A stretch of DNA of 64,000 bases from Phlebopus portentosus (Eukaryota; Basidiomycota; Agaricomycetes; Boletales; Boletinellaceae), in NCBI GenBank assembly GCA_037892935.1, contig JAYXKI010000004.1, positions 2,108,001 to 2,172,000 on the forward strand, read 5' to 3'. Positions within the stretch are counted from its first letter, which is position 1. Every line of letters starts with the position of its first letter. Positions 17,346 through 53,123 of the stretch are shown piece by piece. Both the position numbers and the translations under genes were made by a program. The notes under the pieces were generated by a model. The model had not been told where the DNA came from. It saw only the letters and a list, made by a program, of their open reading frames with translations, and did no database searches.

Positions 17346-18329
17346 ATGCGGCGTGGTATCAGACGCTTTACACACCGAATTATGCAGCCCAATCCAGAGC
17401 ATTTCGAAAGGCTTCAAGGACAGAATAGTGGAGACGATTCTCACCCACTAGTACAGCAAGGGCCTGGGGAGGTCGCTGTGGAATATATTCAAGAGGAACC
17501 CGATCGACGATATTACGAGGACGAACGCGACGAAAGGGAGGACCCATACGATTTACAGCAAGGACTAGCTGGAATGCATATTGGGCATACTCCTCCACCC
17601 GAGCGAAGCTACGTGGACATGGAAGAACGGAACATCGCAAGATACGTGGAACTCCTGCAGAAAAGACGATATCGACATAGTGCAACCAGACGCTTTGTTC
17701 ATGAAAGCCTGGTCTGTACAAACTGCTATTTGGCATACCAAAGGAGTTGGGTTCTTTCGGAGTGGCTCCTCAAGAACTTCGTGGAGCGCTTAGTAACTAG
17801 GGAAGGAGCCGATGTCAAGATTCGGCATAAACCCGGACCCTCAGAACGAACGTTTGACCAACCATTACCGAACCGCGGAATGAGCGCATACGACCACGAG
17901 GTATCTGTATGGCTCGGCGATAGGGATATCTATGCACTAAAGGTTGGCGTGAGAGCTTGGATCAATCAGCATCGTCACCAGACCTTGTGTCGAAACACTG
18001 CAGTGGAAGTCGATTGGCCGATCTATTACAGGGCGCCATCGGACGTCGAAAGTCTTATCGAAGAAGCAACGGATCGAATGCTAGAAGCATGGGAACGATC
18101 GGAAGAAGGGGTTATTACAGTCGACGAATGGCGCGGGACGAATCACCTGGGAAGAAGATACAGGTTAACGTCGGGTACCGGACTACAATTCTCCGACATC
18201 GATATCGCGGCTAGGCACAGAAGGGTGTCTGCTAAATTTACACAGCCGCCGAGGTTAATCTCCGATGATCGGCAGGGGTTGCCGATCCCAAATCCCGAGA
18301 TAACGGTCAGCCCCATGATGGAAGACTAA
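17346..18329 (+). CDS. LTR-encoded protein (U3 ORF), element A 5' copy
   Basis: A 327-aa frame starting 24 bp inside the LTR (ATG at 17346). It has an acidic N-terminal part (YIQEEPDRRYYEDERDERED), then a CTNCYLAYQRSW block (C124, C127, W135) that could be half of a metal site. Next come YDHEVSVWLGDRDIYALKVG and VEVDWPIYYRAPSDVESLIE, and a charged helical stretch ending in EEGVITVDEWRG. I recognise no known domain. It is open in all four LTR copies of A and B although they differ by several amino-acid changes. Motifs recur with the same spacing in the unrelated LTR H. As U3 it is upstream of the LTR promoter, so in the 5' copy it would need another promoter. Confidence 0.75.
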   Translation: MRRGIRRFTHRIMQPNPEHFERLQGQNSGDDSHPLVQQGPGEVAVEYIQEEPDRRYYEDERDEREDPYDLQQGLAGMHIGHTPPPERSYVDMEERNIARYVELLQKRRYRHSATRRFVHESLVCTNCYLAYQRSWVLSEWLLKNFVERLVTREGADVKIRHKPGPSERTFDQPLPNRGMSAYDHEVSVWLGDRDIYALKVGVRAWINQHRHQTLCRNTAVEVDWPIYYRAPSDVESLIEEATDRMLEAWERSEEGVITVDEWRGTNHLGRRYRLTSGTGLQFSDIDIAARHRRVSAKFTQPPRLISDDRQGLPIPNPEITVSPMMED

Positions 18330-18633
18330 CGGCAGAAGCTCGGCCGGAGTAACGGAGCGCCGGCGAAGCGAGATCGCGGCACATGAAAGAAGTCTCTCGT
18401 GGGAGGATTGGCGTTAAGGATTAACATGTGATAGGAATGGAGATCGATAGAAGCCTGGGGAAAGCTTCTTCGGAATGGAAGGAAATTAGGGCCTGCCTAA
18501 TAGGGAAGGAAGTAGTCGGTGGTGCAACCAGGAGTTTCGGTAGCACCACCAGAGTTGTCAGTGGTACTACAGACTCAAGAGAGTAGTAGTGACACCAGCT
18601 GAAACACATTGTCCTAACCAATAGCGAGGCATG

Positions 18634-18700
18634 GTCGGTAGTATTTGGTAGTCGGTAGTATTCAGTAGAAACTTTATTTAAGGCGCCAGCTGAGCGGGGT
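18634..18700 (+). promoter_or_regulatory. LTR promoter, element A
   Basis: Three GGTAGT repeats (TCGGTAGTATT twice) lie at 18634-18667. TTTATTTAAG, a TATA-like box, follows at 18673-18682. The same arrangement occurs in every A/B LTR. The transcription start is probably 25-60 bp downstream, dividing U3 (with the ORF) from R/U5. Confidence 0.6.
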
Positions 18701-19063
18701 GTTGTCCCTCAGCAAAATTATTTTGTACTTTCAATCATAACTGTACCCCTTTGATTGAACCTCTGCTCTACTGCTGGGTCAAGCTTGAGCCTATAGCTCG
18801 CTTCTTAGTAGTACATCTAACCTTTGCTACTCTACTCTCCAATTATACATTGTCAGAAGGAGGAAGCAGGGACTTGTTCCGGTACGCTCGGACTAACCAC
18901 CTCGTCCGAAAATACTGGTCCTAACATTATAATTTTGCTCCAATCCTGGGATAATCAATCTTGCTGTTTCCTAGTGCAATACCCACTATCGATCAGTAAG
19001 TATTGCTCTGCCCTGGGAGGGTTTCGCCTGTGCCTGTTAATACAATTAGCTGATCACCGATAA

Positions 19064-19981
19064 GCGTATCGTCAACGGCTAAAGCAGGCTTACACACTCC
19101 ATCGGAGTTTTGTTAGAGCGCTCCATACATTCGAAGAAGAAGTCAATTCGGCGTTTCGCACGATAAACTTCTATCGAGGTAAGAAGCACTCAAACACCCC
19201 TATCCTAGAACCCTACCGGTCGGTTATACTATCCGCCCTGGAGCTTCGAATCAACGCCGAAAGACACGAAAGAGTTGGAAGGAAGTTCTTGCTTGTACAC
19301 GCGGACAACCTATTGAACGGACACAGTTTTAATTGGGAAGCACTCAGAGGTCCAACGCCGGTGGAAGAAGAACTACTCGCTCTGTGTCAGGAATATAAAG
19401 CGTTCGAATACACCCTACTCGAACATTCTCATTTCCTCCATCAAGTCCTTTTACAAGTTTATCAAGGCAACTATACTACTGCGAAACAACTATGTCACCG
19501 ATGGAACTGTGGCAAGTTGGTTGGTCTAGTCTCTGGTTTACACTCTGCATCGTCTGGTTTTCTTCCATGGTATACGTCATTGCTCAACAACTCCGAGGTC
19601 GAATCAGCCTTCTTCGAGGCTTTGGAACGCTATGGACGTGGGTGGAACGGCAAGACAACGAAAGAAGTTCCCCATTCCGTCGTGCCGGTCAGAGATTTCT
19701 ACTCCAAACTCAACGACTGGCAGTTCCTCAACCCGGACCTGGAGAACGTATGGAATCCGCTCTGGCACGCATCAGCGAACGACTCGACAGTCTACACGGA
19801 CGCTTGGACCGAATGGTCAGTGCTGACGGGCAACCCAACCAAGTTGTCTCCGCCCTGCGACACGCCGTCGTCGACCTCGACAATCGACTTACTAGCGTTG
19901 ATCAGTCCCTCAGAACTCTCACAACTACTGTCGCTCGACTCTATGACATGGGCTCTCAATACTCCGAGAACCTTACCATAG
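19064..19981 (+). CDS. ORF1 upstream of gag, element A, unknown
   Basis: A 305-codon open frame without a usable ATG. The first part looks coding (YTLHRSFVRALHTFEEEVNS, EEELLALCQEYKAFEYTLLE, HFLHQVLLQVYQGNYTTAKQ). After 19492 it overlaps ORF2 in another frame, and its composition becomes serine/threonine/proline-rich, like a shadow. It may be a separate exon spliced to an upstream start, or the N-terminal part of ORF2 reached by a frameshift. The same open frame exists in element B (33240-34157). I recognise no domain. Confidence 0.4.
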   Translation, partial: AYRQRLKQAYTLHRSFVRALHTFEEEVNSAFRTINFYRGKKHSNTPILEPYRSVILSALELRINAERHERVGRKFLLVHADNLLNGHSFNWEALRGPTPVEEELLALCQEYKAFEYTLLEHSHFLHQVLLQVYQGNYTTAKQLCHRWNCGKLVGLVSGLHSASSGFLPWYTSLLNNSEVESAFFEALERYGRGWNGKTTKEVPHSVVPVRDFYSKLNDWQFLNPDLENVWNPLWHASANDSTVYTDAWTEWSVLTGNPTKLSPPCDTPSSTSTIDLLALISPSELSQLLSLDSMTWALNTPRTLP

Positions 19982-21399
19982 AAGGACAGACACTGGGGGA
20001 GTTTCTGGCGCATATTCAGGGACATGTCGGGGATGCGATTGCCGAGGCAGTCATCACCAACCTCAGGCGAGAAGGCGAACAGCGAGACGTTCGAATCAAC
20101 TACGCGTTTGGTATTCTTCAGGCTCGTATTCTGGGAGCGGTAACAATGGCCATTCAGGGCAGTCAGTCAGCCCTTGCTCAACAAGTGGTCAACTCCCAGC
20201 AAGAGATTATTCGGCTTACTGGTGCGGACTTCCTGCAGTTACACACGCAGGCTAGCTACCTGGTCGAACAGGTTGAGGCTATTCGAGCCCGGATCAGCAA
20301 TGCCGAGGAAGAACTCGCGGCCCAGTACTCGATCACGGAAGGCATTCGTCGGATCCAACAAACGATTAGGCTTCGTCAATCCTACCTGACGCAGCGAGCT
20401 AGGCGAGGAGGGGCAAGGTTGAGCCCTGACTCCCCGCTGCAAGGTAGAGGCCTAGGTCTAGCCAGCCGCTTCGAAAGCGTGAGCTCGGACTCCAACGACG
20501 ACCAGATGCCCTACCTGATCCCAGCAAGTGAACGCTTTGTGGATCAGATGGTTGAGATTATTTGCCAGAGCAGGGAACCAGGAGGAACGGACACTCGAAC
20601 AGGACAACCATCGTCGCAGTTGCGACAGCAGGCAGTAGAAGTTGGAAGGAACTATGTCGCTGAGGTAGTTGCGGAAGGAGGGCTGGTAGCGCCTACTGCG
20701 CTCGCCCAAGAGGAACAGGAAGTCGAAGGAAGCATCGAAGTTGAAGAAGATCTCCCGGACTACGTCTCCACAGAAACGCAACCCGGAAGCCTGGACCAGC
20801 AAGCAGAAGAACTGCTGAGGGAGGTGATTCCCGAGTCATCACAGCCCTGGCCATCCAATGACGGATGGGGGCTGCCTCCCGATGCTGGGGAAGCATGGGA
20901 GGCGGACAACACGGCGGAAACTGGTCATGGCACAGGAATCCGGGAGCTCATGTGGAATGAGCAGGGAGAACTCGTCGAGGGAGCAATTCAACAGCTGGGA
21001 TGGAATGGCCACTACGTCGAAAGGAACCACATTCAATACCCGCACCAGGACTCGCCACCAGGATCGCCTACTCCAAGTGCTCTTGAGCTTGAGGAGAGAG
21101 AAGCAAGGCTCCAGGCGGTCAGTGAGTACTCCCCAGACTCTGATTATATCTATGATCCTATCATTCGTCCTAACAGCTGCCCTATACCATCGGACTTTCT
21201 CGACATACGAGAGGGACCACCGAGGCAGGGGGTAGCGAACATGGCGATGGTAGTTTGGGTGCGAGGTAACAATGTAGAAGAGCCAACCAGCGAGGATCAA
21301 GAGTACTTCGATGCCAACGACGAATGGGAGACAGAAGAGGAAAGCGAGGAACACGAAAGCGGCGAGGAACGATACGAAGCTCGGGAAGAAAGGAGATAG
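19492..21399 (+). CDS. ORF2 upstream of gag: membrane-anchored coiled-coil protein, element A
   Basis: A 635-aa protein; a second ATG at 19501 has the better context (ccgATGg). Residues about 10-32 are hydrophobic (SSLWFTLCIVWFSSMVYVIA) and are followed by basic residues, as in a signal anchor. Residues about 85-330 form heptad-rich coiled coils (ERMESALARISERLDSLHGR, DLDNRLTSVDQSLRTLTTTV, VEQVEAIRARISNAEEELAA). The C-terminal 300 residues are acidic and low-complexity, ending EEESEEHESGEERYEAREER. It lies 193 bp upstream of gag on the same strand. Extra genes in Gypsy elements usually follow pol, so this position is unusual. A structural or envelope-like role is only a guess; it has no receptor-binding or fusion motif I can identify. 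Confidence 0.75.
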   Translation: MSPMELWQVGWSSLWFTLCIVWFSSMVYVIAQQLRGRISLLRGFGTLWTWVERQDNERSSPFRRAGQRFLLQTQRLAVPQPGPGERMESALARISERLDSLHGRLDRMVSADGQPNQVVSALRHAVVDLDNRLTSVDQSLRTLTTTVARLYDMGSQYSENLTIEGQTLGEFLAHIQGHVGDAIAEAVITNLRREGEQRDVRINYAFGILQARILGAVTMAIQGSQSALAQQVVNSQQEIIRLTGADFLQLHTQASYLVEQVEAIRARISNAEEELAAQYSITEGIRRIQQTIRLRQSYLTQRARRGGARLSPDSPLQGRGLGLASRFESVSSDSNDDQMPYLIPASERFVDQMVEIICQSREPGGTDTRTGQPSSQLRQQAVEVGRNYVAEVVAEGGLVAPTALAQEEQEVEGSIEVEEDLPDYVSTETQPGSLDQQAEELLREVIPESSQPWPSNDGWGLPPDAGEAWEADNTAETGHGTGIRELMWNEQGELVEGAIQQLGWNGHYVERNHIQYPHQDSPPGSPTPSALELEEREARLQAVSEYSPDSDYIYDPIIRPNSCPIPSDFLDIREGPPRQGVANMAMVVWVRGNNVEEPTSEDQEYFDANDEWETEEESEEHESGEERYEAREERR

Positions 21400-21592
21400 G
21401 CCCTGGGTTAGAGCTGAGAGCTTGCCAGGAGGAAGAAAGATGCCCAAGAACCGACCGGGGAGGAAGGGTAAGGTGGCTAGTTGGAAAGCGGAGGTGGTAC
21501 TCGCTGGATAACTTAGCTACTAAACCATGTATTATTGTAATGCGCTGAATGAAGGTGATACTCATAAAAATGTTGAATTCGTCTAGGTCATT

Positions 21593-22615
21593 ATGTCAAA
21601 CAAAGATATCATGAAGTATCCCTTGTTTAAGGGAAACCCTTATGAGTCACTTGAAAACTTCCAGAATCAAATGATCAGCCGGTTGAATGAAAAACATCCG
21701 AGCAACCCAGTCAAGAGGGTTAAGATTATTTTGGAATGTCTGCGAGGTCAAGCTCAGACTTGGGTTAATGGCAAGTGGGCCGTGAACAGAAATCAATTAG
21801 TCTCCACCTACAAGCGAGATGCGGATGGCAAGCTTGTTATAGACAAGAAGGGTGGATGGGACAGCGAGGACGATCTATGGAACGAATTAGCGCTCAACCA
21901 CAATGGCATTTTTGGACTTCAAGAAGAAGCCGAGCGGAATATTAGGACAATTTATCAGGAACGGGCGCGGGTGAAGCAGTATAACAGGGCCTTTGACGAC
22001 ATTAGGATGAGGCTGCCAAAGCACTACGACCATCAGGCACTGATTTACGAGTACAAGAGAGGACTCAATCAAACGATCCTAAAGGCCCTACTTACGAATA
22101 CAGACCACCCAGAATGGGACCTGAACCAATGGAAGGAGAACGCTAGTAATCTGGAGGCCAGTCTGATGGCTGCCAAGGTGATAGGCAGCAATAGGAAGTA
22201 CACCCCTATGTTTAAAGATGGGCAGGCAGTATCGTACACGCCAGTGCCCCCAGAAGCTCACCGTCCAGCTGAGTTTCTGGGTGAGCCTATGGACATCGAC
22301 ATGTCTAGGCGCTTTACTAGGGGGTCCCGAGGAGATGCCGGGATATGCTGGGCATGCGGCAAGACAGGTCACTTCGCACGGGACTGCAATAATGTAGGGC
22401 GAGACACACAGGGAAGCCGTGGACACCGAACCAACTACAAGAGACGGGTGCAGAAGAGACGATCTGGCAAGACTGGCCGCTTCCTAAAACGCCGGGAAGT
22501 TGGGATTAGCAGCGATTCTGAAATGGAGGAACTACTGGACAAGAAAACGAAGTTACCAAGGCGTAAGGAACGGGCTTTGTATGCCCTCGAGGAGGATTCT
22601 GAGGAGGATTTTTGA
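21593..22615 (+). CDS. gag: Gag, element A
   Basis: A 340-aa capsid/nucleocapsid protein. The N-terminal part has the retrotransposon Gag fold (FKGNPYESLENFQNQMISRL, IILECLRGQAQTWVNGKWAV, IYQERARVKQYNRAFDDIRM). One CCHC zinc knuckle, CWACGKTGHFARDC, occupies residues 252-265, followed by a basic tract (RRVQKRRSGKTGRFLKRR). It ends at TGA 22613-22615 within a frameshift site that leads into pol. Confidence 0.95.
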   Translation: MSNKDIMKYPLFKGNPYESLENFQNQMISRLNEKHPSNPVKRVKIILECLRGQAQTWVNGKWAVNRNQLVSTYKRDADGKLVIDKKGGWDSEDDLWNELALNHNGIFGLQEEAERNIRTIYQERARVKQYNRAFDDIRMRLPKHYDHQALIYEYKRGLNQTILKALLTNTDHPEWDLNQWKENASNLEASLMAAKVIGSNRKYTPMFKDGQAVSYTPVPPEAHRPAEFLGEPMDIDMSRRFTRGSRGDAGICWACGKTGHFARDCNNVGRDTQGSRGHRTNYKRRVQKRRSGKTGRFLKRREVGISSDSEMEELLDKKTKLPRRKERALYALEEDSEEDF

Positions 22616-25600
22616 AGGGCCGCCAGTCAACATCGGACACTGGCGAGGGCTCGAAGGACACACAAGAAATAAAGCGCCGATGGACTATTGCTAGACCTAA
22701 CTCCAACCATCCCACTATACCCATTGACGTCATTCAGGGACAGAAAAAGGTTAATCTCTCGGCTATGATTGACTCCGGATCTGCGATCACTACTATTAGC
22801 CCCACGGTTGTACAGAGCCTAGGGCTGAGAACAGTGCCTGCAGAAGGTAATTATACCATCCGGAATGCCGATGGATCGATTAATCATGGTGGATGGACTC
22901 GGAACGTCAGAGCAATAGTGGACACAGGGATTACAAGAGGTCTAATGGACATCGCAGTGGTGGATACACACGAAGACAAGTTTCTCATAGGAAATGATTG
23001 GCTTGAACAGCATAAGCCAACTATCGACTGGACAAAGGGGATTCTTCGCAAAGGCGGAAAGGAAATTGCATTTAATGGAACGGCACGATTGCGTTCCATA
23101 CAGCTAATCCTAGCCCCAAGGAAGCTCCGGAAACGCAGAAGATGGCGAAGAATTCCAGACTACATTCCACCCGAATGGGATGCCGATGATGAAAAGGAAG
23201 AAGCTTGGGAAACTAGGGTCTATTACCACAGCGACATCGAAACAGGACTAGAAACCGAGAAGGAAGACATAGAAGAAGAACCTACGATCGTACCACCAGA
23301 CAAAGGAAAAGAAAAGGAATCAGCAGCACCGCTTGTCACGTTCGAAGAAGTCATGCACAAGCCGCCAGAACTCTCCTTCGCTAAGCAAGAAGGAAGATGG
23401 AAATTCTTTCGGTTCGGGGACAAGTGCCAAATAACAAAGGACGATCAAAACTGGCACAACTTTAACAGTCTCGAGGATGCAGATAGTGCAGTATATCGCA
23501 CCATGGTCAGAGAAATGGACAAGGGCGCCAAACATGATGAACTCCTCGATGAATATGGCGGCATGTATATGGCGCGTCTTCAGCTGATAGCGATTCAGGG
23601 AGGCCTGGGAACAATGACCTCACCAACAACATCTGAAGACCAAGCAAGAGTGCGGGAAGAAATTCAGGCACAAATGACAATCGACGCAGAAGGATCTGAT
23701 ACGAGTAGAAGGAAGAAGCCTAGTGTACCACCTAAAGGAGGAAAGCCTGGACACTACGCACCCGATCCTCTCAAGATGCGTCGACAGAAGAGCGGAGGAA
23801 GTGGTACGGATTCAAACCCTGTCATAAGAAGTATAAGGGTGGAGTGGACTCCTCCATCCGTGCACGAGGGCCACAATGACTCAACCCTGGCAGTGCAAAA
23901 GCAGTCGGTAAGCTTCACCACACGAAGCAGAGGTACAAGCAGGAGTACTTCGGGTCGGGAGCGCCGTGGAACTAAGGCCACGAAGCGTACTAGGTTCGGC
24001 CACCTAGTGAGAACTCCTCCTACGAGAAACCGAGGAGTGACTAGACATGAGACGCCGTTCAAGGGTAGGCTAGTGTCTAGGAAAGTGGTCCACCCCAAAG
24101 GGAGGGTAGTCCCACTCAATTGGCACAGGGCCGAAGTTAGTACGCCGCAATCATCAAGTAGGCTAGCTTCGGGAGCTCAAGTGTGCCCGCGAAGACCATG
24201 GCTTAAGAACCAAATGCAGGGCCCTGCTCCGACAGGGAAAACAAACGGTAAAGGTAACAGGTTCATTTTGAACTATGCCGCGATGGAGCAGGGGCTCTCG
24301 CAGGGGCAGAAGAGGCGCCGATGGTGCACGCCTGTTGACGCGGTCATGCAGCCGCCCAAAGTGGAAGGAAAAGTGCTAGAGAGAAGAGCTGGATCTGAGA
24401 CGGAGTTCAAGGGTATCCTAGGATCGCACAAGCCTGCTACCTTAGGGGAAGCAGAGGACGCCTCTCGAAGAGGAGAGCCACCCAAACCTCCTCACTGGAT
24501 CCGCCGCCTAGAGCATCGACAAGTCGCATCACGGAGAGAACGCCTTCTCAAGTACAACAGCATAGCTCAAAAATACGCACAAGAGAAAGCACTCGATGAA
24601 AGGATGGCAGGCTCTGCTGGCAACAAATCTCTCGAAGACCTTCTTCCAAAACAAATATGGGAGTTCAGGGATAGGTTCGACAAGGATGCTGCTAAGCGGC
24701 TACCTAAGTCGGGACAATGGGACATGAAGATCGAGCTCCTACCAGGAGCAGAGCTCCCGAAACCTGGACCGGTATATCCACTCGCTCCTGCTGAAAAGCG
24801 AGCGGTAGAAGAATGGATTCGCGAGGACCTGAAGAAGGGATGGATTCGTGTTGTAGGAAACCGAGTACCAGCTGAAGAAAAGGCGAACACTTGCGCACCA
24901 GTATTTGTCATAGCCAAGAAGACAATAGGGAAGGATGGCAAGCCGGAGTATAGGATTGTTATCGACTATAGAGGACTGAATGCGGTGGTCATTCCAGACC
25001 ACCAACCGATGCCTCTATTACATATGCTCCCGGACGACCTTGCACATGCCAAATGGTTCTCTACACTGGATTTGCGAAGCGGGTATAACAACATCAGAAT
25101 ACACCCTGGGCACGAGAAGTATGCCGCCTTCAGGACTCACATGGGAGTATACCAGCCGATGGTAATGCAGTTTGGATTAATGAATGCACCTGCGGTATTC
25201 CAACGTGCAATGAACGAGCTCTTTCAGGACATGATTGGGCAGGGCATACTCATTTATTTGGACGACATTATAGTCTATGCGGAAACGGAACAGGAACATT
25301 GGGACCTGTTAGCAGAGGTATTGCGCAGGTTGAGGGAAGCAGACTTCTTCTGTAAACCAGAGAAGTGCTACTTCGGAAAGAAGGAACTCGACTATTTAGG
25401 ATTTGTGGTTAACCAGTTGGGCATGCAGATGGATCCCTACAAGGTAAAGGCAGTTCAAGAATGGCCAGATTTGTCAAGCAAGCGAGACATTCGAAAGTTT
25501 ATTGGTTTTGCAAACTTCTACCGAAAATTTATTGAAGGCTTCGCCAAGATCGCTAGGCCACTAACGGAACTTATGTCCGGCAAGAAGACGTTTACCTGGG

Positions 25601-27903
25601 GAGAACGACAACAAGAGAGCTTTAGGAAACTTAAAGAAGCTTTTACCACTGCACCAATGCTAGTACGACCGGATCATGAGAAGCAATTTGTGCTGGAAAC
25701 CGACGCGTCAAACTTTGCGATGGGAGCCGTGCTCTCGCAGCTTGGGGACGATGAAATTTTGCACCCCATTGGATATTGGTCGAACACCTATCGAGACGCC
25801 GAGAATAACTATCCAGTAATGGACAAGGAATTACTAGCGATTGTCAAGGCCTTGAGCAACTGGAGGCACCACTTAGAAGGAGCTAAACATGAGATTCGAG
25901 TGGTCAGCGATCAAGCTAACCTTCGATATTTTATGGGAGCTAGGAAGCTAAGTGGCCGCCAAGCAAGATGGGCAACATTTCTCAGCAGATTTCGATTTCG
26001 AATCGAGTATCGACCTGGAACCAAGAATTCACGAGCGGACGCATTATCAAGGAGGCCAGACTATGAGCAGGGCCAAGAGGACCAGCCAGAACAAGTCCTA
26101 CTTCCTCCGCAATTGTTCAGAACATCGAACTTGCCCATGCGCACAGTACGGGTATTTGAGCTTACAGGGGGTCCTGAACTGGGAGAGAAGATTCGAGACG
26201 CCTATGAACGATCCAAAGAGCCAGCAATCGGAACGTTCGAAGAAGGATATTGGTGGAAGGATGATAAATTGGTTATCCCACCAGATGAAGAAGTTAAGAA
26301 GGAAATTGTACGACAGTGCCATGACGCACCGGCGTCAGGACACCCGGGGTTACAGAAGACTATAGATAAACTGGAAAGAAGAGTTTGGTGGCCAAAGATG
26401 AGGGAATGGGTCGAAGAATATGTGCGCACATGCGACGTGTGCCAAAGGACGAAAGCGCGACGAGGAAAGACTCAACCACCGCTACAACCATTGCAGATAG
26501 CGACAAAGCCCTACGACGAGATTACTATGGACTATGTCACCGGACTTCCAACGACGAGCAAAGGAAACAATGCGATACTAGTGGTGGTAGACAGGTTCTC
26601 TAAAATGGGAACTTTTATACCTACTACAGTAAATGCAAACTCGAAGACCACTGCGGACTTGATGATCAATCATGTCTACAGCAAGGTCGGAACTCCGAAG
26701 ACAGTAATCAGCGACAGGGGACCTCAATTCGCTAGCCGGTTTACAGAACAGGTGAACCAGGCCCTCGGGATTGAAACAAAGCTTAGCACGGTGTATCATC
26801 CACAAACAGATGGTCAAACAGAGCGGGTAAATCAAGAAATGGAACAGCTGCTACGTTGCTATTCCAGCTTGCAGCAAGACGATTGGGACGAACATCTACC
26901 TATGGCAGAATTCGCCTATAATAGTCGCTCTCACTCTAGTACAGGCAAGACACCGTTTGAATTGGTGTATGGGTTTCAGCCGGAATTAGGATTCAAGCTT
27001 CCGATCCGAGAAACACAGGACTATGTGGCTATGCGAAAGAAGAATCAAGAGGAAGCAACAAAGGCGCTGGAGAAGGCACGAGACGCAATGAAGAGATTCG
27101 CAGACAGACACCGAGGCCCGATGCCGTCATTCGAAGTTGGCGATAAAGTTATGTTAGATGGTCGGAATCTAACCTTGCTAGTTCCCACTAGGAAGCTAGG
27201 GGATAGAAACCTAGGACCGTATCAAGTCATCGCAAAGCATGGGCTAGTCAACTACGAGTTGGATCTTCCGAAGGAATTAAGGATCCACCCGGTGTTCTAT
27301 GCAGGACTGTTGATTCCCTATCGAGAAAGAAAAGATCCGGCACAGAGAACGAGACCACCACCAGAAGTTATCGCTGGAGAAACCGAGTATGAGGTTGAAG
27401 CGATCCGGGACATGAGGAAAAGGCACGGAAAATGGGAATATCAGGTTAAATGGCTCGGCTACCCGGAGGAAGAAAATACCTGGGAACCTGTAGAAGGGCT
27501 GCGCAATGCCCCAGAGAAATTGCGGGAGTATCACGAGAGGAATCGTTGGCCGGACACGATAGATCTTCCCTCTAGAAAGAAGATCGCAGATATTATAGAC
27601 TCTACGCAGAGGGTAATCGACATTAAAAAGGAGGATGACGAGTTCCTGAGGACGGCACTAGGAGAGTCCGTAGCTCAGAGGGTAATTAGGAGAAGAAGAT
27701 ACCAGAGCAAGACAGGTATCAAACAGCGAGATTTCGGTTATCCGGAATGGCACAAGCGTCATTGGAGAGCCGCAAAAAGGCCGTTCACTCGAAACAAAGC
27801 GCTGCCGGTTCGCAGATGGGATCTGCTAGAAGAAAAAGGGGATCCTTCATACAAGGATTGGTTTTGGGCTGACTCCTCGGATAGTGAGTACAGCGAGGCT
27901 TAG
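22603..27903 (+). CDS. pol: Pol polyprotein with chromodomain, element A
   Basis: This frame is open from 22603 in the -1 frame relative to gag and has no ATG in the overlap. Counting from 22612: protease DSG at 54-56 (LSAMIDSGSAIT); RT with FSTLDLRSGYNNIRIHPG and YLDD at 882-885; RNase H ETDAS with the aspartate near 1031; integrase HHCC finger (H1237, H1244, C1274, C1277); integrase core D1307, D1368, E1404 with 35 residues between the last two; a GPY/F-type module (LGPYQVIAKHGLVNYELDL); and a chromodomain at about 1592-1645 (EYEVEAIRDMRKRHGKWEYQ, VKWLGYPEEENTWEP). All catalytic residues are present. The C-terminal 100 residues are basic. The chromodomain suggests targeting to methylated histone H3; that is family knowledge. 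Confidence 0.95.
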   Translation, partial: GGFLKGRQSTSDTGEGSKDTQEIKRRWTIARPNSNHPTIPIDVIQGQKKVNLSAMIDSGSAITTISPTVVQSLGLRTVPAEGNYTIRNADGSINHGGWTRNVRAIVDTGITRGLMDIAVVDTHEDKFLIGNDWLEQHKPTIDWTKGILRKGGKEIAFNGTARLRSIQLILAPRKLRKRRRWRRIPDYIPPEWDADDEKEEAWETRVYYHSDIETGLETEKEDIEEEPTIVPPDKGKEKESAAPLVTFEEVMHKPPELSFAKQEGRWKFFRFGDKCQITKDDQNWHNFNSLEDADSAVYRTMVREMDKGAKHDELLDEYGGMYMARLQLIAIQGGLGTMTSPTTSEDQARVREEIQAQMTIDAEGSDTSRRKKPSVPPKGGKPGHYAPDPLKMRRQKSGGSGTDSNPVIRSIRVEWTPPSVHEGHNDSTLAVQKQSVSFTTRSRGTSRSTSGRERRGTKATKRTRFGHLVRTPPTRNRGVTRHETPFKGRLVSRKVVHPKGRVVPLNWHRAEVSTPQSSSRLASGAQVCPRRPWLKNQMQGPAPTGKTNGKGNRFILNYAAMEQGLSQGQKRRRWCTPVDAVMQPPKVEGKVLERRAGSETEFKGILGSHKPATLGEAEDASRRGEPPKPPHWIRRLEHRQVASRRERLLKYNSIAQKYAQEKALDERMAGSAGNKSLEDLLPKQIWEFRDRFDKDAAKRLPKSGQWDMKIELLPGAELPKPGPVYPLAPAEKRAVEEWIREDLKKGWIRVVGNRVPAEEKANTCAPVFVIAKKTIGKDGKPEYRIVIDYRGLNAVVIPDHQPMPLLHMLPDDLAHAKWFSTLDLRSGYNNIRIHPGHEKYAAFRTHMGVYQPMVMQFGLMNAPAVFQRAMNELFQDMIGQGILIYLDDIIVYAETEQEHWDLLAEVLRRLREADFFCKPEKCYFGKKELDYLGFVVNQLGMQMDPYKVKAVQEWPDLSSKRDIRKFIGFANFYRKFIEGFAKIARPLTELMSGKKTFTWGERQQESFRKLKEAFTTAPMLVRPDHEKQFVLETDASNFAMGAVLSQLGDDEILHPIGYWSNTYRDAENNYPVMDKELLAIVKALSNWRHHLEGAKHEIRVVSDQANLRYFMGARKLSGRQARWATFLSRFRFRIEYRPGTKNSRADALSRRPDYEQGQEDQPEQVLLPPQLFRTSNLPMRTVRVFELTGGPELGEKIRDAYERSKEPAIGTFEEGYWWKDDKLVIPPDEEVKKEIVRQCHDAPASGHPGLQKTIDKLERRVWWPKMREWVEEYVRTCDVCQRTKARRGKTQPPLQPLQIATKPYDEITMDYVTGLPTTSKGNNAILVVVDRFSKMGTFIPTTVNANSKTTADLMINHVYSKVGTPKTVISDRGPQFASRFTEQVNQALGIETKLSTVYHPQTDGQTERVNQEMEQLLRCYSSLQQDDWDEHLPMAEFAYNSRSHSSTGKTPFELVYGFQPELGFKLPIRETQDYVAMRKKNQEEATKALEKARDAMKRFADRHRGPMPSFEVGDKVMLDGRNLTLLVPTRKLGDRNLGPYQVIAKHGLVNYELDLPKELRIHPVFYAGLLIPYRERKDPAQRTRPPPEVIAGETEYEVEAIRDMRKRHGKWEYQVKWLGYPEEENTWEPVEGLRNAPEKLREYHERNRWPDTIDLPSRKKIADIIDSTQRVIDIKKEDDEFLRTALGESVAQRVIRRRRYQSKTGIKQRDFGYPEWHKRHWRAAKRPFTRNKALPVRRWDLLEEKGDPSYKDWFWADSSDSEYSEA
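22609..22645 (+). promoter_or_regulatory. Putative -1 ribosomal frameshift signal, gag-pol, element A
   Basis: Gag ends GAT TTT TGA. The phenylalanine tRNA on TTT can re-pair with TTT one base back (22609-22611), and pol then continues TTG AAG GGC. After a 5-nt spacer there is a 7-bp hairpin, CGCCAGT (22621-22627) with ACTGGCG (22639-22645). Element B has CGCCGGT on the 5' arm, which still pairs through a G-U. The overlap window allowed by stops is only 22603-22615. Confidence 0.7.
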
Positions 27904-28233: not shown

Positions 28234-28407
28234 TCAATAATAAGTGGAGGACTCTGGATGTACAGTGCTACAGTTATTCCAGGCAAGAGGAATGAGACAC
28301 TAGTACACAAGAAGGGTCTGGTCTAGGAAGCAACAATACGAAACAGCAAGATTATGGCTATCACAATTAAGGGATCCACACTCTCCTTGCAGTCCGAAGT
28401 GGATCTT

Positions 28408-28418
28408 AAGGGGAGGAA
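28408..28418 (+). other. Polypurine tract, element A
   Basis: AAGGGGAGGAA immediately precedes the 3' LTR. Confidence 0.85.
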
Positions 28419-30023
28419 TGTTACGAAAATTGTGGATATACAATGCGGCGTGGTATCAGACGCTTTACACACCGAATTATGCAGCCCAATCCAGAGCATT
28501 TCGAAAGGCTTCAAGGACAGAATAGTGGAGACGATTCTCACCCACTAGTACAGCAAGGGCCTGGGGAGGTCGCTGTGGAATATATTCAAGAGGAACCCGA
28601 TCGACGATATTACGAGGACGAACGCGACGAAAGGGAGGACCCATACGATTTACAGCAAGGACTAGCTGGAATGCATATTGGGCATACTCCTCCACCCGAG
28701 CGAAGCTATGTGGACATGGAAGAACGGAACATCGCAAGATACGTGGAACTCCTGCAGAAAAGACGATATCGACATAGTGCAACCAGACGCTTTGTTCATG
28801 AAAGCCTGGTCTGTACAAACTGCTATTTGGCATACCAAAGGAGTTGGGTTCTTTCGGAGTGGCTCCTCAAGAACTTCGTGGAGCGCTTAGTAACTAGGGA
28901 AGGAGCCGATGTCAAGATTCGGCATAAACCCGGACCCTCAGAACGAACGTTTGACCAACCATTACCGAACCGCGGAATGAGCGCATACGACCACGAGGTA
29001 TCTGTATGGCTCAGCGATAGGGATATCTATGCACTAAAGGTTGGCGTGAGAGCTTGGATCAATCAGCATCGTCACCAGACCTTGTGTCGAAACACTGCAG
29101 TGGAAGTCGATTGGCCGATCTATTACAGGGCGCCATCGGACGTCGAAAGTCTTATCGAAGAAGCAACGGATCGAATGCTAGAAGCATGGGAACGATCGGA
29201 AGAAGGGGTTATTACAGTCGACGAATGGCGCGGGACGAATCACCTGGGAAGAAGATACAGGTTAACGTCGGGTACCGGACTACAATTCTCCGACATCGAT
29301 ATCGCGGCTAGGCACAGAAGGGTGTCTGCTAAATTTACACAGCCGCCGAGGTTAATCTCTGATGATCGGCAGGGGTTGCCGATCCCAAATCCCGAGATAA
29401 CGGTCAGCCCCATGATGGAAGACTAACGGCAGAAGCTCGGCCGGAGTAACGGAGCGCCGGCGAAGCGAGATCGCGGCACATGAAAGAAGTCTCTCGTGGG
29501 AGGATTGGCGTTAAGGATTAACATGTGATAGGAATGGAGATCGATAGAAGCCTGGGGAAAGCTTCTTCGGAACGGAAGGAAATTAGGGCCTGCCTAATAG
29601 GGAAGGAAGTAGTCAGTGGTGCAACCAGGAGTTTCGGTAGCACCACCAGAGTTGTCAGTGGTACTACAGACTCAAGAGAGTAGTAGTGACACCAGCTGAA
29701 ACACATTGTCCTAACCAATAGCGAGGCATGGTCGGTAGTATTTGGTAGTCGGTAGTATTCAGTAGAAACTTTATTTAAGGCGCCAGCTGAGCGGGGTGTT
29801 GTCCCTCAGCAAAATTATTTTGTACTTTCAATCATAACTGTACCCCTTTGATTGAACCTCTGCTCTACTGCTGGGTCAAGCTTGAGCCTATAGCTCGCTT
29901 CTTAGTAGTACATCTAACCTTTGCTACTCTACTCTCCAATTATACATTGTCAGAAGGAGGAAGCAGGGACTTGTTCCGGTACGCTCGGACTAACCACCTC
30001 GTCCGAAAATACTGGTCCTAACA
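28419..30023 (+). repeat. Element A 3' LTR
   Basis: 1605 bp. I noticed five substitutions relative to the 5' LTR, for example a Gly-to-Ser change in the ORF (LGDRD versus LSDRD). ACACA follows at 30024. Confidence 0.95.
28443..29426 (+). CDS. LTR-encoded protein (U3 ORF), element A 3' copy
   Basis: 327 aa, same frame as 17346-18329. This copy would lie at the 3' end of the genomic transcript, downstream of pol, so it could be expressed from a spliced or internal RNA, as the LTR-encoded Sag of mouse mammary tumour virus is. It ends IPNPEITVSPMMED. The PPT and LTR start are only 24 bp upstream of its ATG, leaving almost no leader. Confidence 0.75.
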   Translation: MRRGIRRFTHRIMQPNPEHFERLQGQNSGDDSHPLVQQGPGEVAVEYIQEEPDRRYYEDERDEREDPYDLQQGLAGMHIGHTPPPERSYVDMEERNIARYVELLQKRRYRHSATRRFVHESLVCTNCYLAYQRSWVLSEWLLKNFVERLVTREGADVKIRHKPGPSERTFDQPLPNRGMSAYDHEVSVWLSDRDIYALKVGVRAWINQHRHQTLCRNTAVEVDWPIYYRAPSDVESLIEEATDRMLEAWERSEEGVITVDEWRGTNHLGRRYRLTSGTGLQFSDIDIAARHRRVSAKFTQPPRLISDDRQGLPIPNPEITVSPMMED

Positions 30024-42549: not shown

Positions 42550-44154
42550 TGTTACGAAAATTGTGGATATACAATGCGGCGTGGTATTAGACGCTTTACA
42601 CACCGAATTATGCAGCCTAATCAAGAGCATTTCGAAAGGCTTCAAGGACAGAATAGTGGAGGCGATTCTCGCCCACTAGTACAGCAAGGACCTGGGGAGG
42701 TCGCTGTGGAATATATTCAAGAGGAACCTGATCGACGATATTACGAAGACGAACGCGACGAAAGGGAGGACCCATACGATTTACAGCAAGGACTAGCTGG
42801 AATGCATATTGGACATACTCCTCCACCCGAGCGAAGCTATGTGGACATGGAAGAACGGAACATCGCAAGATACGTGGAACTCCTGCAGAAGAGACGATAT
42901 CGACATAGTGCAACCAGACGCTTTGTTCATGAAAGCCTGGTTTGTACAAACTGCTATTTGGCATACCAAAGGAGTTGGGTTCTTTCGGAGTGGCTCCTCA
43001 AGAACTTCGTGGAGCGCTTAGTAACTAGGGAAGGGGCCGATGTCAAGATTCGGCATAAACCCAGACCCTCAGAACGAACGTTTGACCAACCATTGCCAAA
43101 CCGCGGAATGAGCGCATACGACCACGAAGTATCTGTATGGCTTGGCGACAGGGATATCTATGCACTGAAGGTTGGCGTGAGAGCTTGGATCAATCAGCAT
43201 CGTCACCAGACCTTGTGTCGAAACACTGCAGTGGAAGTCGATTGGCCAATCTATTACAGGGCTCCATCGGACGTCGAAAGTCTTATCGAAGAAGCAACGG
43301 ATCGAATGCTAGAAGCATGGGAACGATCGGAAGAAGGGGTTATTACAGTCGACGAATGGCGCGGGACGAATCACCTGGGAAGAAGATACAGGTTAACGTC
43401 GGGTACCGGACTACAATTCTCCGACATCGATATCGCGGCTAGGCACAGAAGGGTGTCTGCTAAATTTACACAGCCGCCGAGGTTAATCTCCGATGATCGG
43501 CAGGGGTTGCCGATCCCAAATCCCGAGATAACGGTCAGCCCCATGATGGAAGACTAACGGCAGAAGCTCGGCCGGAGTAACGGAGCGCCGGCGAAGCGAG
43601 ATCGCGGCACAGGGAAGAAGTCTCTCGTGGGAGGTTTGGCGTTAAGGATTAACATGTGATAGGAATGGAGATCGATAGAAGCCTGGGGAAAGCTTCTTCG
43701 GAACGGAAGGAAATTAGGGCCTGCCTAATAGGGAAAGAAGTAGTCGGTGGTGCAATCAGGAGTTTTGGTAGCACCACCAGAGTTGTCAGTGGTACTACAG
43801 ACTCAAGAGAGTAGTAGTGACACCAGCTGAAACACATTGTCCTAACCAATAGCGAGGCATGGTCGGTAGTATTTGGTAGTCGGTAGTATTCAGTAGAAAC
43901 TTTATTTAAGGCGCCAGCTGAGCGGGGTATTGTCCCTCAGCAAAATTATTTTGTACTTTCAATCATAACTGTACCCCTTTGATTGAACCTCTGCTCTACT
44001 GCTGGGTCAAGCTTGAGCCTATAGCTCGCTTCTTAGTAGTACATCTAACCTTCGCTACTCTACTCTCCAATTATACATTGTCAGAAGGAGGAAGCAGGGA
44101 CTTGTTCCGGTACGCTCGGACTAACCACCTCGTCCGAAAATACTGGTCCTAACA
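42550..44154 (+). repeat. Element B 3' LTR
   Basis: 1605 bp, TGTTACG...CTAACA, followed by the AGGTC duplication. Confidence 0.95.
42574..43557 (+). CDS. LTR-encoded protein (U3 ORF), element B 3' copy
   Basis: 327 aa, identical to the 5' copy apart from the DEWRG position. It is preceded by only 24 bp of LTR. Confidence 0.75.
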   Translation: MRRGIRRFTHRIMQPNQEHFERLQGQNSGGDSRPLVQQGPGEVAVEYIQEEPDRRYYEDERDEREDPYDLQQGLAGMHIGHTPPPERSYVDMEERNIARYVELLQKRRYRHSATRRFVHESLVCTNCYLAYQRSWVLSEWLLKNFVERLVTREGADVKIRHKPRPSERTFDQPLPNRGMSAYDHEVSVWLGDRDIYALKVGVRAWINQHRHQTLCRNTAVEVDWPIYYRAPSDVESLIEEATDRMLEAWERSEEGVITVDEWRGTNHLGRRYRLTSGTGLQFSDIDIAARHRRVSAKFTQPPRLISDDRQGLPIPNPEITVSPMMED

Positions 44155-45001: not shown

Positions 45002-45009
45002 GTCAACGG

Positions 45010-46157: not shown

Positions 46158-46160
46158 CTA

Positions 46161-49100: not shown

Positions 49101-49329
49101 AGACCATTGATTGGGTTGGGGTAAGGGGCGTAGGTTCGTCTACGTCGTCTTCTCGCTTCACTCTCCAATAGAGAGACTTTTCTCCCCTCTGGGAGTACCA
49201 CTTCTTTGCAGCTTTGTCCCACCAGGCGTCGAAGACTTGATCCCCTGCTTTGATGATGTAGTGACCTTGCGAAATGCTCCACCTAGAGTTTACCGGTAGG
49301 GCCGCTCGTTGGTCGTCAGTTAGCTCCAC
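46161..49329 (-). pseudogene. Element D gag and protease
   Basis: Minus-strand reading from 49329: TDDQRAALPVNSRWSISQGH at the start; a poly-Glu tract near 48.98 kb; capsid-like FDGKHDYVDFKRELHLYIYA and SYMKSGAVARWVESYTSG; after solo LTR M is removed, a proline-rich linker and the zinc knuckle CYKCGQVGHYIREC near 47.1 kb; then an acidic stretch and the protease active site HALIDSGCTGSCIDERFV near 46.35 kb. A stop directly after the knuckle, one before the protease and shifts in gag make it inactive. The protease frame is cut at 46160 by element E and continues at 11627. Confidence 0.85.
47274..48266 (-). mobile_element. Solo LTR M (TGAAAC family) in gag of D
   Basis: 993 bp flanked by CCGG at 47270-47273 and 48267-48270. 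Read on the minus strand it starts TGAAACGTGTC and ends TCTCTACA. Deletion joins gag as MTKPAPVPPLRRLVPP, restoring the frame into the zinc knuckle. It shares GTTCCG-rich stretches with L and CTAGCTAG plus neighbouring words with C. Confidence 0.8.
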
Positions 49330-49745
49330 CTTAATAGGCTGGGGGTGGAATGGGGATTGGGATGGAGTTCGGACGGGTCCTACTTCAGATGATCAGCTCG
49401 TCTTTGAAATTGATAACTAAGTGAAAGGCTCCGAGGTATATGATGAATGAGATACTGGTCGACGATTGGACTCTATGCGTCACCCACGAGAACGTTTGAT
49501 GTTGGTTCTAAAGGAGGGTAATTCTGAGCACTACAGTGATGTGATTGGTTGATACTTTGGGTATTATTGGGTCACGTCGGAGTCAATCAGACTTCGACGG
49601 GCAAGATAGGGGTTTGTTGTTTGCACAGTAGAAACTAGGTTTTGTTCGATGCCATCCTTCGAAGGTATACTTCAGGAGACACGTCACAGGCGAGCGCTCG
49701 ATGACAACAGAATTGGGCGTGAGCCAGAGGTAGGTCTTACTATTA

Positions 49746-50211
49746 TGTTAGGCAGATGGCTCAAGGACTGAGTCGAGGCAGGCCAATACAACAACAAACA
49801 AGCGTGGATGAGATAATCCCAAACACATCGCTCAGGTCAAGACAGCTAAGACGAGGCTTAAGTCCAGACTGTCGAACACTAAGTCGTCGTGAAGGTAAGT
49901 AGATTATTCACAACTAAATAGTATAAGGGGGAGTAGATACCTAAGTCGTCGTGAAGGTAAGTAGAATAGTAAGACGGGGAAACAAGAAGGTCAGACTAAC
50001 TACTTATATAGACGTCAACTGTGGGAAAGGTCTACTCTATTAAGGGATCACATGATAAAGGAGAGGGATGCTTAGTGAGTGTGATAGAACCTCGTGGAAT
50101 GTTCTAGTGAGAGGATGCGTAAGCGCATAAGGAAAAGAAAAGAAAAGAAAAAGAATATTAAAAATGAATGATGACATAAGAAAAGAAAAGAAAAATGTTT
50201 GAGTCCTTACA
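49746..50211 (-). repeat. Element D 5' LTR
   Basis: 466 bp, pair of 8027-8491, with a few transitions between them. TTAGC follows at 50212. Confidence 0.9.
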
Positions 50212-50598
50212 TTAGCCTTTAGACTTTAGGCGTTAGGCTTTGGTAGTCATATTCTAGACTTCTTGGGCTTCTAGTAGTTTTGATCGCTTCTTGACTTCTT
50301 TTGATTAGGTTGGATCGGGAGTTTGGTTGGTAGTGTTAAGGTGATGGTCAGCGGTAATAAGTCGGCGGTGGTAATTACTGGTCGGCAGTGTTAAGTAGTC
50401 TGTGGGGTTACATACTTGTGGTGTGCTTCTTAGGCGCCCATATATTGCTGTTGATGCCCATGACCATTGCCTTAGTCATGTTAATAGTAGTTTGGCTCTA
50501 GTGACTGCTGGGCTGTTACTAGTTGCATTTGGAATGCTGATCCTGTTGATCTGCTGATTGTGTCGATCTTGATGTGAGTTTTTGAGCGGATCCTTTCA
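50212..50598 (+). repeat. Repeat F, copy 1, right piece
   Basis: Continuation of 7955-8026 after element D. It ends GAGCGGATCCTTTCA. Confidence 0.75.
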
Positions 50599-51057
50599 CC
50601 ATGTACACTTGGGCACAAGTCTGGCAGTGCTGGAATGCCAGTGATGTCTCCATTGGGCTCAGATTAGCCTTTAGACTTTAGTCATTAGGCATTAAGCTTT
50701 AGTAGTCATGTTCTAGGCTTCTTGGACTTCTAGTAGTTTGATTGCTTCTTGACTTCTTTTGATTGGGTTGGATCGAGAGTTTGGTCAGTGGCGTTAAGGT
50801 GACAGTTGGCAGTAATAAATCAGCGGTGGTAATTGCCAGTCAGCAGTGTTAAGTAGTCTATGGGATTATGTACTTATGGCATGCTTCTCAGGCGCCTATA
50901 TATTGCCATTAATGCCCGTGACTATTGCCTTGGTCACATGAACAGTAGTTTGGCTCCAGTGATTGTTAGCCTATTACTAGTCACATTTGGAATGCTGATC
51001 CTGTTGATCTGCTGATTGTGTTGATCTTGATATGAGTTTTTGAGCGAATCCTTTTAG
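50599..51057 (+). repeat. Repeat F, copy 2
   Basis: Uninterrupted 450-bp copy in tandem with F1 (CCATGTACACTTGGGCACAA...GAGCGAATCCTTTT). It shows the TTAGC site where D inserted in F1. Differences are mostly transitions. No ORF. Confidence 0.75.
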
Positions 51058-52439
51058 TGAGACATGTGACTATCAAATCAAAGTCCAACATCACATGCAG
51101 GAACAATTACATACCAATCCACTAAATCCTATAGTACCCAAGTGACATGAGAAACTTATCATTATAACTTAAACTCCTCGAGCTACAGACCTAATAACTT
51201 AGAAGATACTAGGATGGTACAAGCCAGAGCTGCACAATCTATGTCCAGCTTCTATAGTACAAGTGAACCTTTATTTACCAAGGAACGCAAACCTAGACAC
51301 TAAGCAATTACAACTGGTACTCTAATGAAAGATATGGCATTACATTTGTGACATTCAACTTTCAGGCAAAGCATGGCTAGTCACTTAAATATAACTGCAT
51401 CCTCCAGCAGAACTTATACAGTTCATGGTATGTATTGGACTATACTCCACACCAACCTGACATCTCAATATCAATGTGCAAGTTATACTTACACTCTTCA
51501 GATCATGAGATAAATAGTAAAGAGTCACATATCGAGCTGCTTATATTGCACCAAGAGCTATAATCTCACCTGATGATGGACCTAATATTATAATGGAGCA
51601 CTGACAGTGGAGCTTTCTATACTGGAGCAGCACCTCTATTGTTTCAGTCAGCAACTCTATAGAATTTTATTATGGTGGAGATATATTGAAGCAAAGTGGC
51701 ACTCAGTGGAGCAGAATGACAAAGGAAGTGATATAATGATAGAGTGAAGTGGAGCAAGGTAGAGCAAGGTAGAGAAAAGTGGAGAGAAGATGAGTAAGAA
51801 ATAAGATAGAAAATAGATTATTTAGAAAGCATAAATAGCATTAGAAGTAGGCCCTCTTTCTCCCATCTTTCGATCCTCTTAATACATAGTGACAGTGTCT
51901 TAATACACTATCCACTATGTGCTTTATACTACTATGCCTCTTGAAAATCTTAATCTGCTCTTACTCTACCTCATCTCTGAAAGCATCTCTAACTAGAACT
52001 GTGACTAGGAAAGTTAGTAAGGGGACTGCTGAAACTCCTGTAAACTGTCTGATAGCTGAGGAGTGTCACAGTTCTTGGGGGCTATTTGGTAAGATCAAGA
52101 TAAGTGGGAAAGAGCTGGGTGACTTTTAAGTAATATCAGAGTGAGACTAATGTGTTGATCTGGGTTCCGGAGCAGTTCTGGAAGGGATGGAGGAGAAATA
52201 GGATTGAAGGCTGTTGGATATATGTGAGAGGGGAATTAGATTAAAGGAGATAAGTGAAGAAGCAAAGCGAGAGAAGTTAAAGTAAGGGGGATCGGCAGTA
52301 GTAGTACAAAGGTAAATGAAGCCCTCTGTTAGAAATTGCTTTAGTCAGCAGTATAGTGTGCATGTGACAGCATATAACCAAGATGTTCACATGACAAGCA
52401 AGAATGCTAGAAACTACATTAAAGAGAATAATTAATCAA

Positions 52440-53123
52440 GGACGAGCCAGTCAATGGCCAGAAGTGAAGGATGACTGTGAGAAATGCAAACAAGCACAGC
52501 AGATAGGATGGGACATTTATTGTACAATAATCTCATCGCTCTTGATGATAGAGGTATTAGCAATGAACTTTGACATATGAGGGACACATAGAGTATTTCC
52601 AGGATACGTTACTCAAGAAGGCATACAACAGCCTAATACGAATTATGTGACATTTGAACATATGGTAGCAGTATTCTCACATGACGAACGAGACTATCTA
52701 ATGAACACAGGAGTACAGATTAAATTCCCAAAGCGGAAATACAAAGAAGAATGTCAATTTATATATATTAATATTGATATACCATACAGAAGGGGAGCTA
52801 ACGAAATAGTACAACGTATAGCAGAAAATACGATAACTAGAGTTAAAGAATTCATTAGACTTATTGATGCAGAAGGAGTATCAGTCATGGACGAGCGAGT
52901 CACAGAGATATCAATAGAACACAGGATCAAGTTTGTGATTAGTCCAATTAAGATTCTAATGCCACCGGAAGAAGGGTTCACAAGAATGATGACATATCTT
53001 TACAAGAGAAGCTTTCCGGTAGATGATAGAACATCGGTGGGAAAAACCCCAGGACTTCCAGAAGAAGATGTAGTACCCCACAGGCACCGAACCTCGGAAG
53101 CTATGGAGATCGATGATCACTGA
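52440..53123 (+). pseudogene. LTR H U3 ORF, related to the A/B LTR protein
   Basis: The frame runs from about 52440 to TGA 53121-53123 with one in-frame TGA at 52578. The uninterrupted part from ATG 52662 is 153 aa. Upstream of the stop is CEKCKQAQQIGW, with the same C-x2-C-x2-A-x-Q-x2-W spacing as CTNCYLAYQRSW in A. Downstream, TFEHMVAVFSHDERDYLMNT with GVQ matches AYDHEVSVWLGDRDIYALKV with GVR. INIDIPYRRGANEIVQRI matches VEVDWPIYYRAPSDVESLI, and EGVSVMDE matches EGVITVDE. I therefore read it as a homologue. The single stop looks like a decayed arginine codon. Function unknown. Confidence 0.65.

What the first reader, a model, noticed from the sequence alone, without database searches (positions are those of the whole stretch)
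17346..53123. A family of proteins encoded inside LTRs, shared by two different LTR families
The 1605-bp LTRs of elements A and B each carry a 327-codon ORF in U3, starting 24 bp from the LTR edge; it is open in all four copies. A separate solo LTR, H (52327-53840), also has a U3 ORF in the same place relative to its TATA box. The two proteins share C-x2-C-x2-A-x-Q-x2-W with exact spacing, then D/E-H-x-V-x-V, a V/I-D-x-P-x-Y/R block and E-G-V-x-V-x-D-E, in the same order. LTRs that encode proteins are rare (MMTV Sag is the known animal example), and I know of no described fungal Ty3/Gypsy family with one. Because the ORF occurs at both ends of the element, gene conversion by reverse transcription would keep both copies identical.
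Basis: partly seen in the sequence, partly recalled or inferred. Interest (0 to 1): 0.88.

Follow-up and report, generated by a model that had tools for sequence, protein, structure and literature searches.

The report
Fungal retrotransposon gene inside its LTR
Two related families of jumping genes in a medicinal bracket fungus carry a conserved protein gene inside the repeated ends that normally hold only control signals, an arrangement best known from a mouse tumour virus.

Summary
LTR families A (elements A and B) and H each carry a protein-coding gene at the start of U3. The window's own H copy is broken (two in-frame stops), but its family has intact 246-codon copies. The host is Sanghuangporus-like (best protein hits S. 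sanghuang 97%, S. vaninii 65%).

A and H proteins are homologous (45.8 bits; best of 2000 shuffles 24.6). A third homologue, P0009, finds both families in the whole genome. In-frame pN/pS is 0.09 (A) and 0.17 (H), against 0.5-0.9 in the rest of the LTR. A, H, P0009 and the longer S. vaninii protein keep C-x2-C ... H-x3-C. By RT, H is nearest to A in this genome (65-69% identity; other families 56% or less), so the gene was probably inherited, not captured twice.

Mechanism: a splice-acceptor-like motif ends exactly 26 nt before the 3' LTR in both families, suggesting a spliced subgenomic mRNA as for MMTV Sag. That step and the protein's function are inferred; no RNA data were available. No clear match to a known family, fold or paper was found.

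The parts
17322..18926 (+). 5' LTR of element A (1605 bp)
   Evidence: TGTTACG...TAACA ends, duplication ACACA
17346..18329 (+). U3 ORF, A 5' LTR, 327 aa
18673..18682 (+). TATA-like box of the A LTR
   Evidence: read by eye; consensus resemblance only
18996..19001 (+). splice-donor-like GTAAGT, starting 70 nt past the end of the A 5' LTR
   Evidence: present at 15 of 15 distinct A 5' junctions found in the fetched loci and window (19 rows; places merged)
19064..19981 (+). leader ORF; no ATG before 19492 in this copy; strongly constrained in frame
   Evidence: pN/pS 0.094 for 19064-19489; ATG count
19492..21399 (+). ORF with an N-terminal hydrophobic segment (by eye), 635 aa
   Evidence: only sub-threshold Pfam hits
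21593..22615 (+). gag, 340 aa, CCHC knuckle
   Evidence: Pfam
22765..27903 (+). pol, 1712 aa: RT, RNase H, integrase, chromodomain; protease-like start just below the Pfam cut-off
   Evidence: Pfam
28382..28395 (+). splice-acceptor-like TCTCCTTGCAG|TCC, AG ends 26 nt before the 3' LTR
28408..28418 (+). polypurine tract AAGGGGAGGAA
   Evidence: read
28419..30023 (+). 3' LTR of element A
   Evidence: 5 differences from the 5' LTR
28443..29426 (+). U3 ORF, A 3' LTR, 327 aa
31498..33102 (+). 5' LTR of element B
31522..32505 (+). U3 ORF, B 5' LTR, 327 aa
42513..42526 (+). same acceptor-like motif upstream of the B 3' LTR
42550..44154 (+). 3' LTR of element B
   Evidence: 1 difference from the 5' LTR over the 1604 bases compared
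42574..43557 (+). U3 ORF, B 3' LTR, 327 aa
52327..53840 (+). solo LTR H (1514 bp)
   Evidence: duplication CCCTC
52383..53123 (+). U3 frame of H, 246 codons, broken here by two TGA; intact copies exist elsewhere in the genome
53633..53639 (+). TATA-like box of the H LTR
   Evidence: read by eye

Best explanation
The ORF is a genuine accessory gene of a clade of chromodomain-bearing Ty3/Gypsy retrotransposons, sitting just 3' of the polypurine tract. Because everything 3' of that tract becomes U3, reverse transcription copies the gene into both LTRs. The 5' copy lies upstream of the element's own TATA-like box and is a by-product. The copy in the 3' LTR is the last ORF of the genomic RNA and is most likely translated from a spliced subgenomic mRNA, whose acceptor is the TCTCCTTNNAG|TCC motif 26 nt before the 3' LTR. 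The product is an alpha/beta protein with a probable zinc site (C-x2-C ... H-x3-C) that helps the element in trans, most likely by handling its RNA (for example export of unspliced RNA) or by countering host silencing. Shown: the gene, its homology across the two families and its purifying selection. Supported but not shown: splicing. Inferred: zinc binding and the function.
For: Homology. Selection: dN/dS 0.091 over 24 distinct A sequences and 0.149 over 24 distinct H sequences; in-frame pN/pS 0.086 and 0.172 against 1.5-2.5 (A) and 0.7-1.2 (H) in the other two sense frames, and 0.59-0.90 and 0.53-0.60 in the rest of the LTR. Sites whose rarer base is in at least 4 sequences fall on codon positions 1/2/3 as 0/3/22 (A) and 8/3/25 (H), against 2/6/5 and 10/13/7 outside the ORF. 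Splicing: acceptor-like motif at the same 26 nt at 15 of 15 distinct A and 7 of 7 distinct H 3' junctions found (places merged with the coordinates); 12 of 14 bases shared between A and H, reached in 2 of 5000 shuffles. The A leader has no ATG over 787 nt. Zinc site: the only three cysteines of A and of P0009 are those of the motif.
Against: No RNA evidence. The acceptor-like motif could instead be a pyrimidine-rich signal for plus-strand priming. An intron of about 9 kb is unusual for a fungus (recalled knowledge). No clear donor was recognised in H. A short upstream ATG at the LTR edge precedes the U3 start in both families. The 97% hit P0004 starts at the second Met. The A loci were mostly the best matches by protein score, so its dN/dS is biased low; the H loci were all the matches. 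Sites at intermediate frequency (2-3 sequences) are less skewed: A 11 synonymous to 6 nonsynonymous, H 22 to 24 with 5 stops. Fold matches are weak, so the function is open.
Confidence: 0.62

Rival explanations
1. [quoted passage not shown]
For: H has a TATA-like box and small ORFs after pol in both full copies examined. MMTV makes Sag from two transcripts, one from a promoter inside env (PMC3026287 passages).
Against: Only about 515 nt separate pol from the LTR in A, and no TATA box was recognised there by eye; no promoter scan was run.
Confidence: 0.25
2. The U3 ORF is a host-derived or domesticated gene that LTRs happened to capture, with no role for the element.
For: No Pfam match above cut-off and no significant PDB relative, so the origin is unknown.
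Against: Selection acts between element copies and is strongest in variants shared by many copies. Both families keep the gene in the same place although their pol has diverged to 57% identity.
Confidence: 0.05
3. The open frame is a chance or recent feature kept open because the copies are young.
For: Many A copies are 98-100% identical to one another in DNA.
Against: Frame-specific pN/pS of 0.09 and 0.17, the distant homologue in H and the 40%-identity homologue P0009. 77 of 122 listed A matches have no stop in the matched stretch.
Confidence: 0.02
4. The antisense frame is the gene.
For: The antisense frame that shares third positions also shows low pN/pS, 0.10 in A and 0.29 in H.
Against: That follows from mirrored codon positions. 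The longest antisense frame listed inside the A U3 ORF is 129 codons, and A-H homology was found with the sense-strand protein.
Confidence: 0.02

Closest known systems
Sag of mouse mammary tumour virus (MMTV)
   Same: Protein gene inside a long LTR (about 1.3 kb there). [quoted passage not shown]
   Different: Retrovirus of mice, not a fungal Ty3/Gypsy element. No Sag family appeared among Pfam matches at E up to 1. A superantigen role makes no sense in a fungus.
CERV of the C. elegans Ty3/Gypsy element Cer1
   Same: Extra lineage-specific protein from a spliced mRNA of a Ty3/Gypsy element, needed for nuclear export of genomic RNA (PMC10309623, abstract and passages).
   Different: [quoted passage not shown] No comparison of the sequences was run.
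brtn of Botrytis Boty-like elements
   Same: An additional gene in a fungal Gypsy element (title in the reference list of PMC8365987; that paper was not read).
   Different: Described in the title as antisense; nothing seen here says that it is in the LTR.
ORF3 genes of bdelloid rotifer LTR retrotransposons
   Same: Additional ORFs, typically expressed from spliced messages (PMC5408684, passages).
   Different: Described there as ORF3 in addition to gag and pol; no mention of LTR-encoded ORFs in the passages read.

Membership tests
Ty3/Gypsy chromovirus (elements A and B) | RT and RNase H before integrase, with a C-terminal chromodomain | tested here: met
   Pfam order in the pol of A: RVT_1, RNase H, H2C2, rve, SH3, Chromo; B not scanned
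Ty3/Gypsy chromovirus (elements A and B) | LTRs with TG...CA ends and a short target-site duplication | tested here: met
   TGTTACG...CTAACA, 5-bp duplications
LTR-encoded accessory gene, MMTV-Sag type arrangement | Protein-coding ORF wholly inside the LTR, upstream of the promoter | tested here: met
   ORF and its selection; promoter position rests on a TATA-like box read by eye
[quoted passage not shown]
   Conserved acceptor-like motif at 26 nt; use not shown
MMTV Sag protein family | Sequence homology to Sag | tested here: inconclusive
   No such family among Pfam matches at E up to 1 for P0001, P0003, P0005, P0007, P0009 or P0010; that Pfam holds a Sag model is recalled, and no direct comparison was made
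Retroviral-type envelope protein | Signal peptide, membrane anchor and fusion features | not tested
   No dedicated predictor was run on the U3 protein; no envelope family among Pfam matches
Phage tail terminator fold (best structural match) | Same fold | tested here: inconclusive
   [not shown]

The most novel reading that the evidence does not exclude
A lineage of fungal Ty3/Gypsy elements has evolved a complex-retrovirus-like genome on its own: a translated leader ORF without ATG, a membrane/coiled-coil ORF before gag, small ORFs after pol (in H), and an LTR-encoded zinc protein made from a spliced subgenomic mRNA that governs the element's RNA. The gene duplicated in the LTR would be the fungal counterpart of the MMTV arrangement, reached independently.
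Probability: 0.4. Interest if true: 0.88.

Novelty: new variant of a known kind. Interest (0 to 1): 0.78.

Why it matters
LTRs are usually treated as non-coding, used as molecular clocks and masked in annotation. Here 984 bases of each 1605-base A LTR are under protein-level selection, which would bias such clocks and probably leads gene predictors to call LTR copies as host genes (the S. sanghuang and S. vaninii hits are named 'hypothetical protein'; their LTR context was not seen). It also offers a fungal case of an LTR-encoded accessory protein, so that the reason for putting a gene in U3 can be tested outside mice.

Tried and rejected
Chance openness, antisense coding and captured host gene were considered and rejected or ranked low (see rivals). 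Similarity of the U3 proteins to A's own leader, TM, gag and pol proteins was tested; nothing significant was found (best E 0.20).

Further U3-ORF families in this genome: the rows listed for P0009 are places also found as H or A, except four weak rows (C1:2715289, C2:2955564, C1:2226336, C4:2471734) that I did not check; more matches were not listed. The other RT families were not examined for LTR ORFs.

Structure: the P0009 model (mean pLDDT 70.5, pTM 0.68) has the order helix, four strands, helix, three strands after a weak N-terminal part. The A model (pLDDT 51) has the same order with one extra short helix, but is too weak to search with, and both alignments held the same nine sequences. 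PDB sequence search: 2 hits up to E 10, at E 0.14 and 1.3.

Literature searches covered an open-access library by phrase only. None of the listings or passages that I saw described an LTR-encoded protein in a fungal LTR retrotransposon; subscription papers are mostly missing. Passages seen without such a case: PMC3248453, PMC8365987, PMC2774666, PMC6875170, PMC10787394 (authors suggest promoter function for U3 variation), PMC12037069, PMC4016481; in PMC7264820 none of six terms was found.

A frame slip for the H U3 protein made its U3 comparison and shuffles void; they were redone. The pol, gag and leader comparisons stand. An earlier count of junctions (21, 11 and 19 rows) counted some places more than once; with the coordinates gives 15, 7 and 15 distinct places.
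Full report
What is there. Elements A and B are full-length Ty3/Gypsy elements; A's pol has a chromodomain. A: LTRs at 17322-18926 and 28419-30023, differing at 5 of 1605 positions, duplication ACACA; B: LTRs at 31498-33102 and 42550-44154, 1 difference over the 1604 bases compared. H is a solo LTR with its own duplication. The 327-codon U3 ORF starts 24 bp inside the LTR in all four A/B copies. Elsewhere the H family has intact 246-codon copies; in each of the two full elements examined (C1 and C9) one LTR copy is open throughout and the other has one stop. Ten of 24 distinct full-length ungapped H sequences are free of stops. In A, 77 of 122 listed protein matches show none (counted by hand from the table; at least one match is partial, and the tool calls its counts lower bounds).

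Where it is from. The closest annotated proteins are hypothetical proteins of Sanghuangporus sanghuang (97% identity) and S. vaninii (65% and 63%). A profile of A and H then brought in three more proteins from short ENA contigs without a named organism; P0009 is 40% identical to H and begins with the same M-F-T-R-Q. A further profile search found no others.

Homology. A against H: 23% identity over 157 residues, E 2e-10; 45.8 bits against a maximum of 24.6 in 2000 shuffles. P0009 alone, searched against the six-frame genome, gave H at E 1e-57 and A at about 3e-8; apart from four weak rows that I did not check, every listed row is a place also found as A or H. The cysteines of A and P0009 are exactly those of C-x2-C and, 84-85 residues on, H-x3-C; H and P0005 have one more each. 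The short proteins P0010, P0011 and P0003 keep only the second half, the only half they contain; P0006 has the first half and lacks the stretch with the second. A zinc site is inferred from this.

Selection. Pairwise dN/dS is 0.091 over 24 distinct A sequences and 0.149 over 24 distinct H sequences. Most A loci were the best by protein score, so that value is biased low. Loci were made for all 30 H matches, which avoids this bias; gapped and truncated rows were dropped. Controls: the other sense frames give 1.5-2.5 (A) and 0.7-1.2 (H), and the rest of the LTR 0.59-0.90 and 0.53-0.60. The antisense frame with mirrored third positions is low too, 0.10 and 0.29, as expected from the overlap. With the mutation spectrum of the rest of the LTR, neutrality predicts 2.0 (A) and 2.3 (H) nonsynonymous per synonymous change. 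Nonsynonymous to synonymous counts by the number of sequences with the rarer base: at least 4, A 3 to 20, H 5 to 23 plus 1 stop; 2-3, A 6 to 11, H 24 to 22 plus 5 stops; singletons, A 23 to 29 plus 2 stops, H 41 to 33 plus 5 stops. Constraint is strongest in the widely shared variants and weakens towards singletons, most clearly in H. This is what a gene needed for transposition looks like: selected while copying, decaying after insertion. Element A against B agrees: U3 ORF 18 synonymous, 5 nonsynonymous differences.

Relation of the families. A and H pol are 57% identical over 865 residues, gag 29%, leader ORF 25% (weak, E 0.006); the TM ORFs gave no match. By RT, seven places inside or beside H elements are at 65-69% from A, and all other families at 56% or less (the 56% row is partial; most are 41-54%), with the best 150 of 530 candidates scored. 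The U3 gene is therefore best read as present in the common ancestor of A and H.

How it is expressed. The ORF is upstream of the LTR's own TATA-like box, so only the copy in the 3' LTR should lie in the element's RNA (inference from standard LTR biology). Immediately before the 3' LTR both families have TCTCCTTNNAGTCC with the AG ending 26 nt from the LTR, at 15 of 15 distinct A and 7 of 7 distinct H junctions found with an intact edge and tract. Copies within a family are young, so the comparison between A and H carries the weight: they share 12 of 14 bases there, while sequence further upstream is at random level; 2 of 5000 shuffles reached this. A has a GTAAGT starting 70 nt past the 5' LTR at 15 of 15 distinct junctions. 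The A leader (18705-19491) holds no ATG where about 11.5 are expected; the H stretch of 901 nt holds 1 of about 14.7. Other copies are not wholly free: 4 ATG in 14 distinct A leader rows and 3 in 8 H rows. This is the layout of MMTV Sag mRNA, whose two transcripts use an acceptor just upstream of the ORF in the 3' LTR (PMC3026287 passages). Against it: no RNA, a long intron for a fungus, no clear H donor, an upstream ATG at the LTR edge, and the possibility that the motif serves plus-strand priming.

Novelty. LTR-encoded proteins are a known kind (MMTV Sag); a conserved, seemingly unrelated protein family in the LTRs of fungal Ty3/Gypsy elements was not found in the searches listed. Hence a new variant of a known kind.

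Noticed in passing
19064-19981 and L070 (reverse strand) 2648-3148: Leader ORFs of A and H lie between the 5' LTR and the next ORF in a nearly ATG-free stretch, yet are under strong in-frame constraint (pN/pS 0.094 over 14 distinct A rows, 0.172 over 8 distinct H rows). How they are started is unexplained: non-AUG start or an unseen exon.
   Followed up: partly
19492-21399 and L070 (reverse strand) 3115-4035: A second ORF before gag with an N-terminal hydrophobic segment (by eye), in the same relative frame to the leader ORF in A and H; the H version shows no Met in the printed frame.
   Followed up: partly
L071 (reverse strand) 3753 and 4167; [quoted passage not shown]
   Followed up: no
G000 RT families: Further Ty3/Gypsy families at 41-56% RT identity to A; whether their LTRs hold ORFs was not checked.
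   Followed up: no
8027-8497 and 49746-50217; 5900-6447 and 6842-7389: Other long direct repeats in the window (96-97% and 89% identical pairs), not examined.
   Followed up: no
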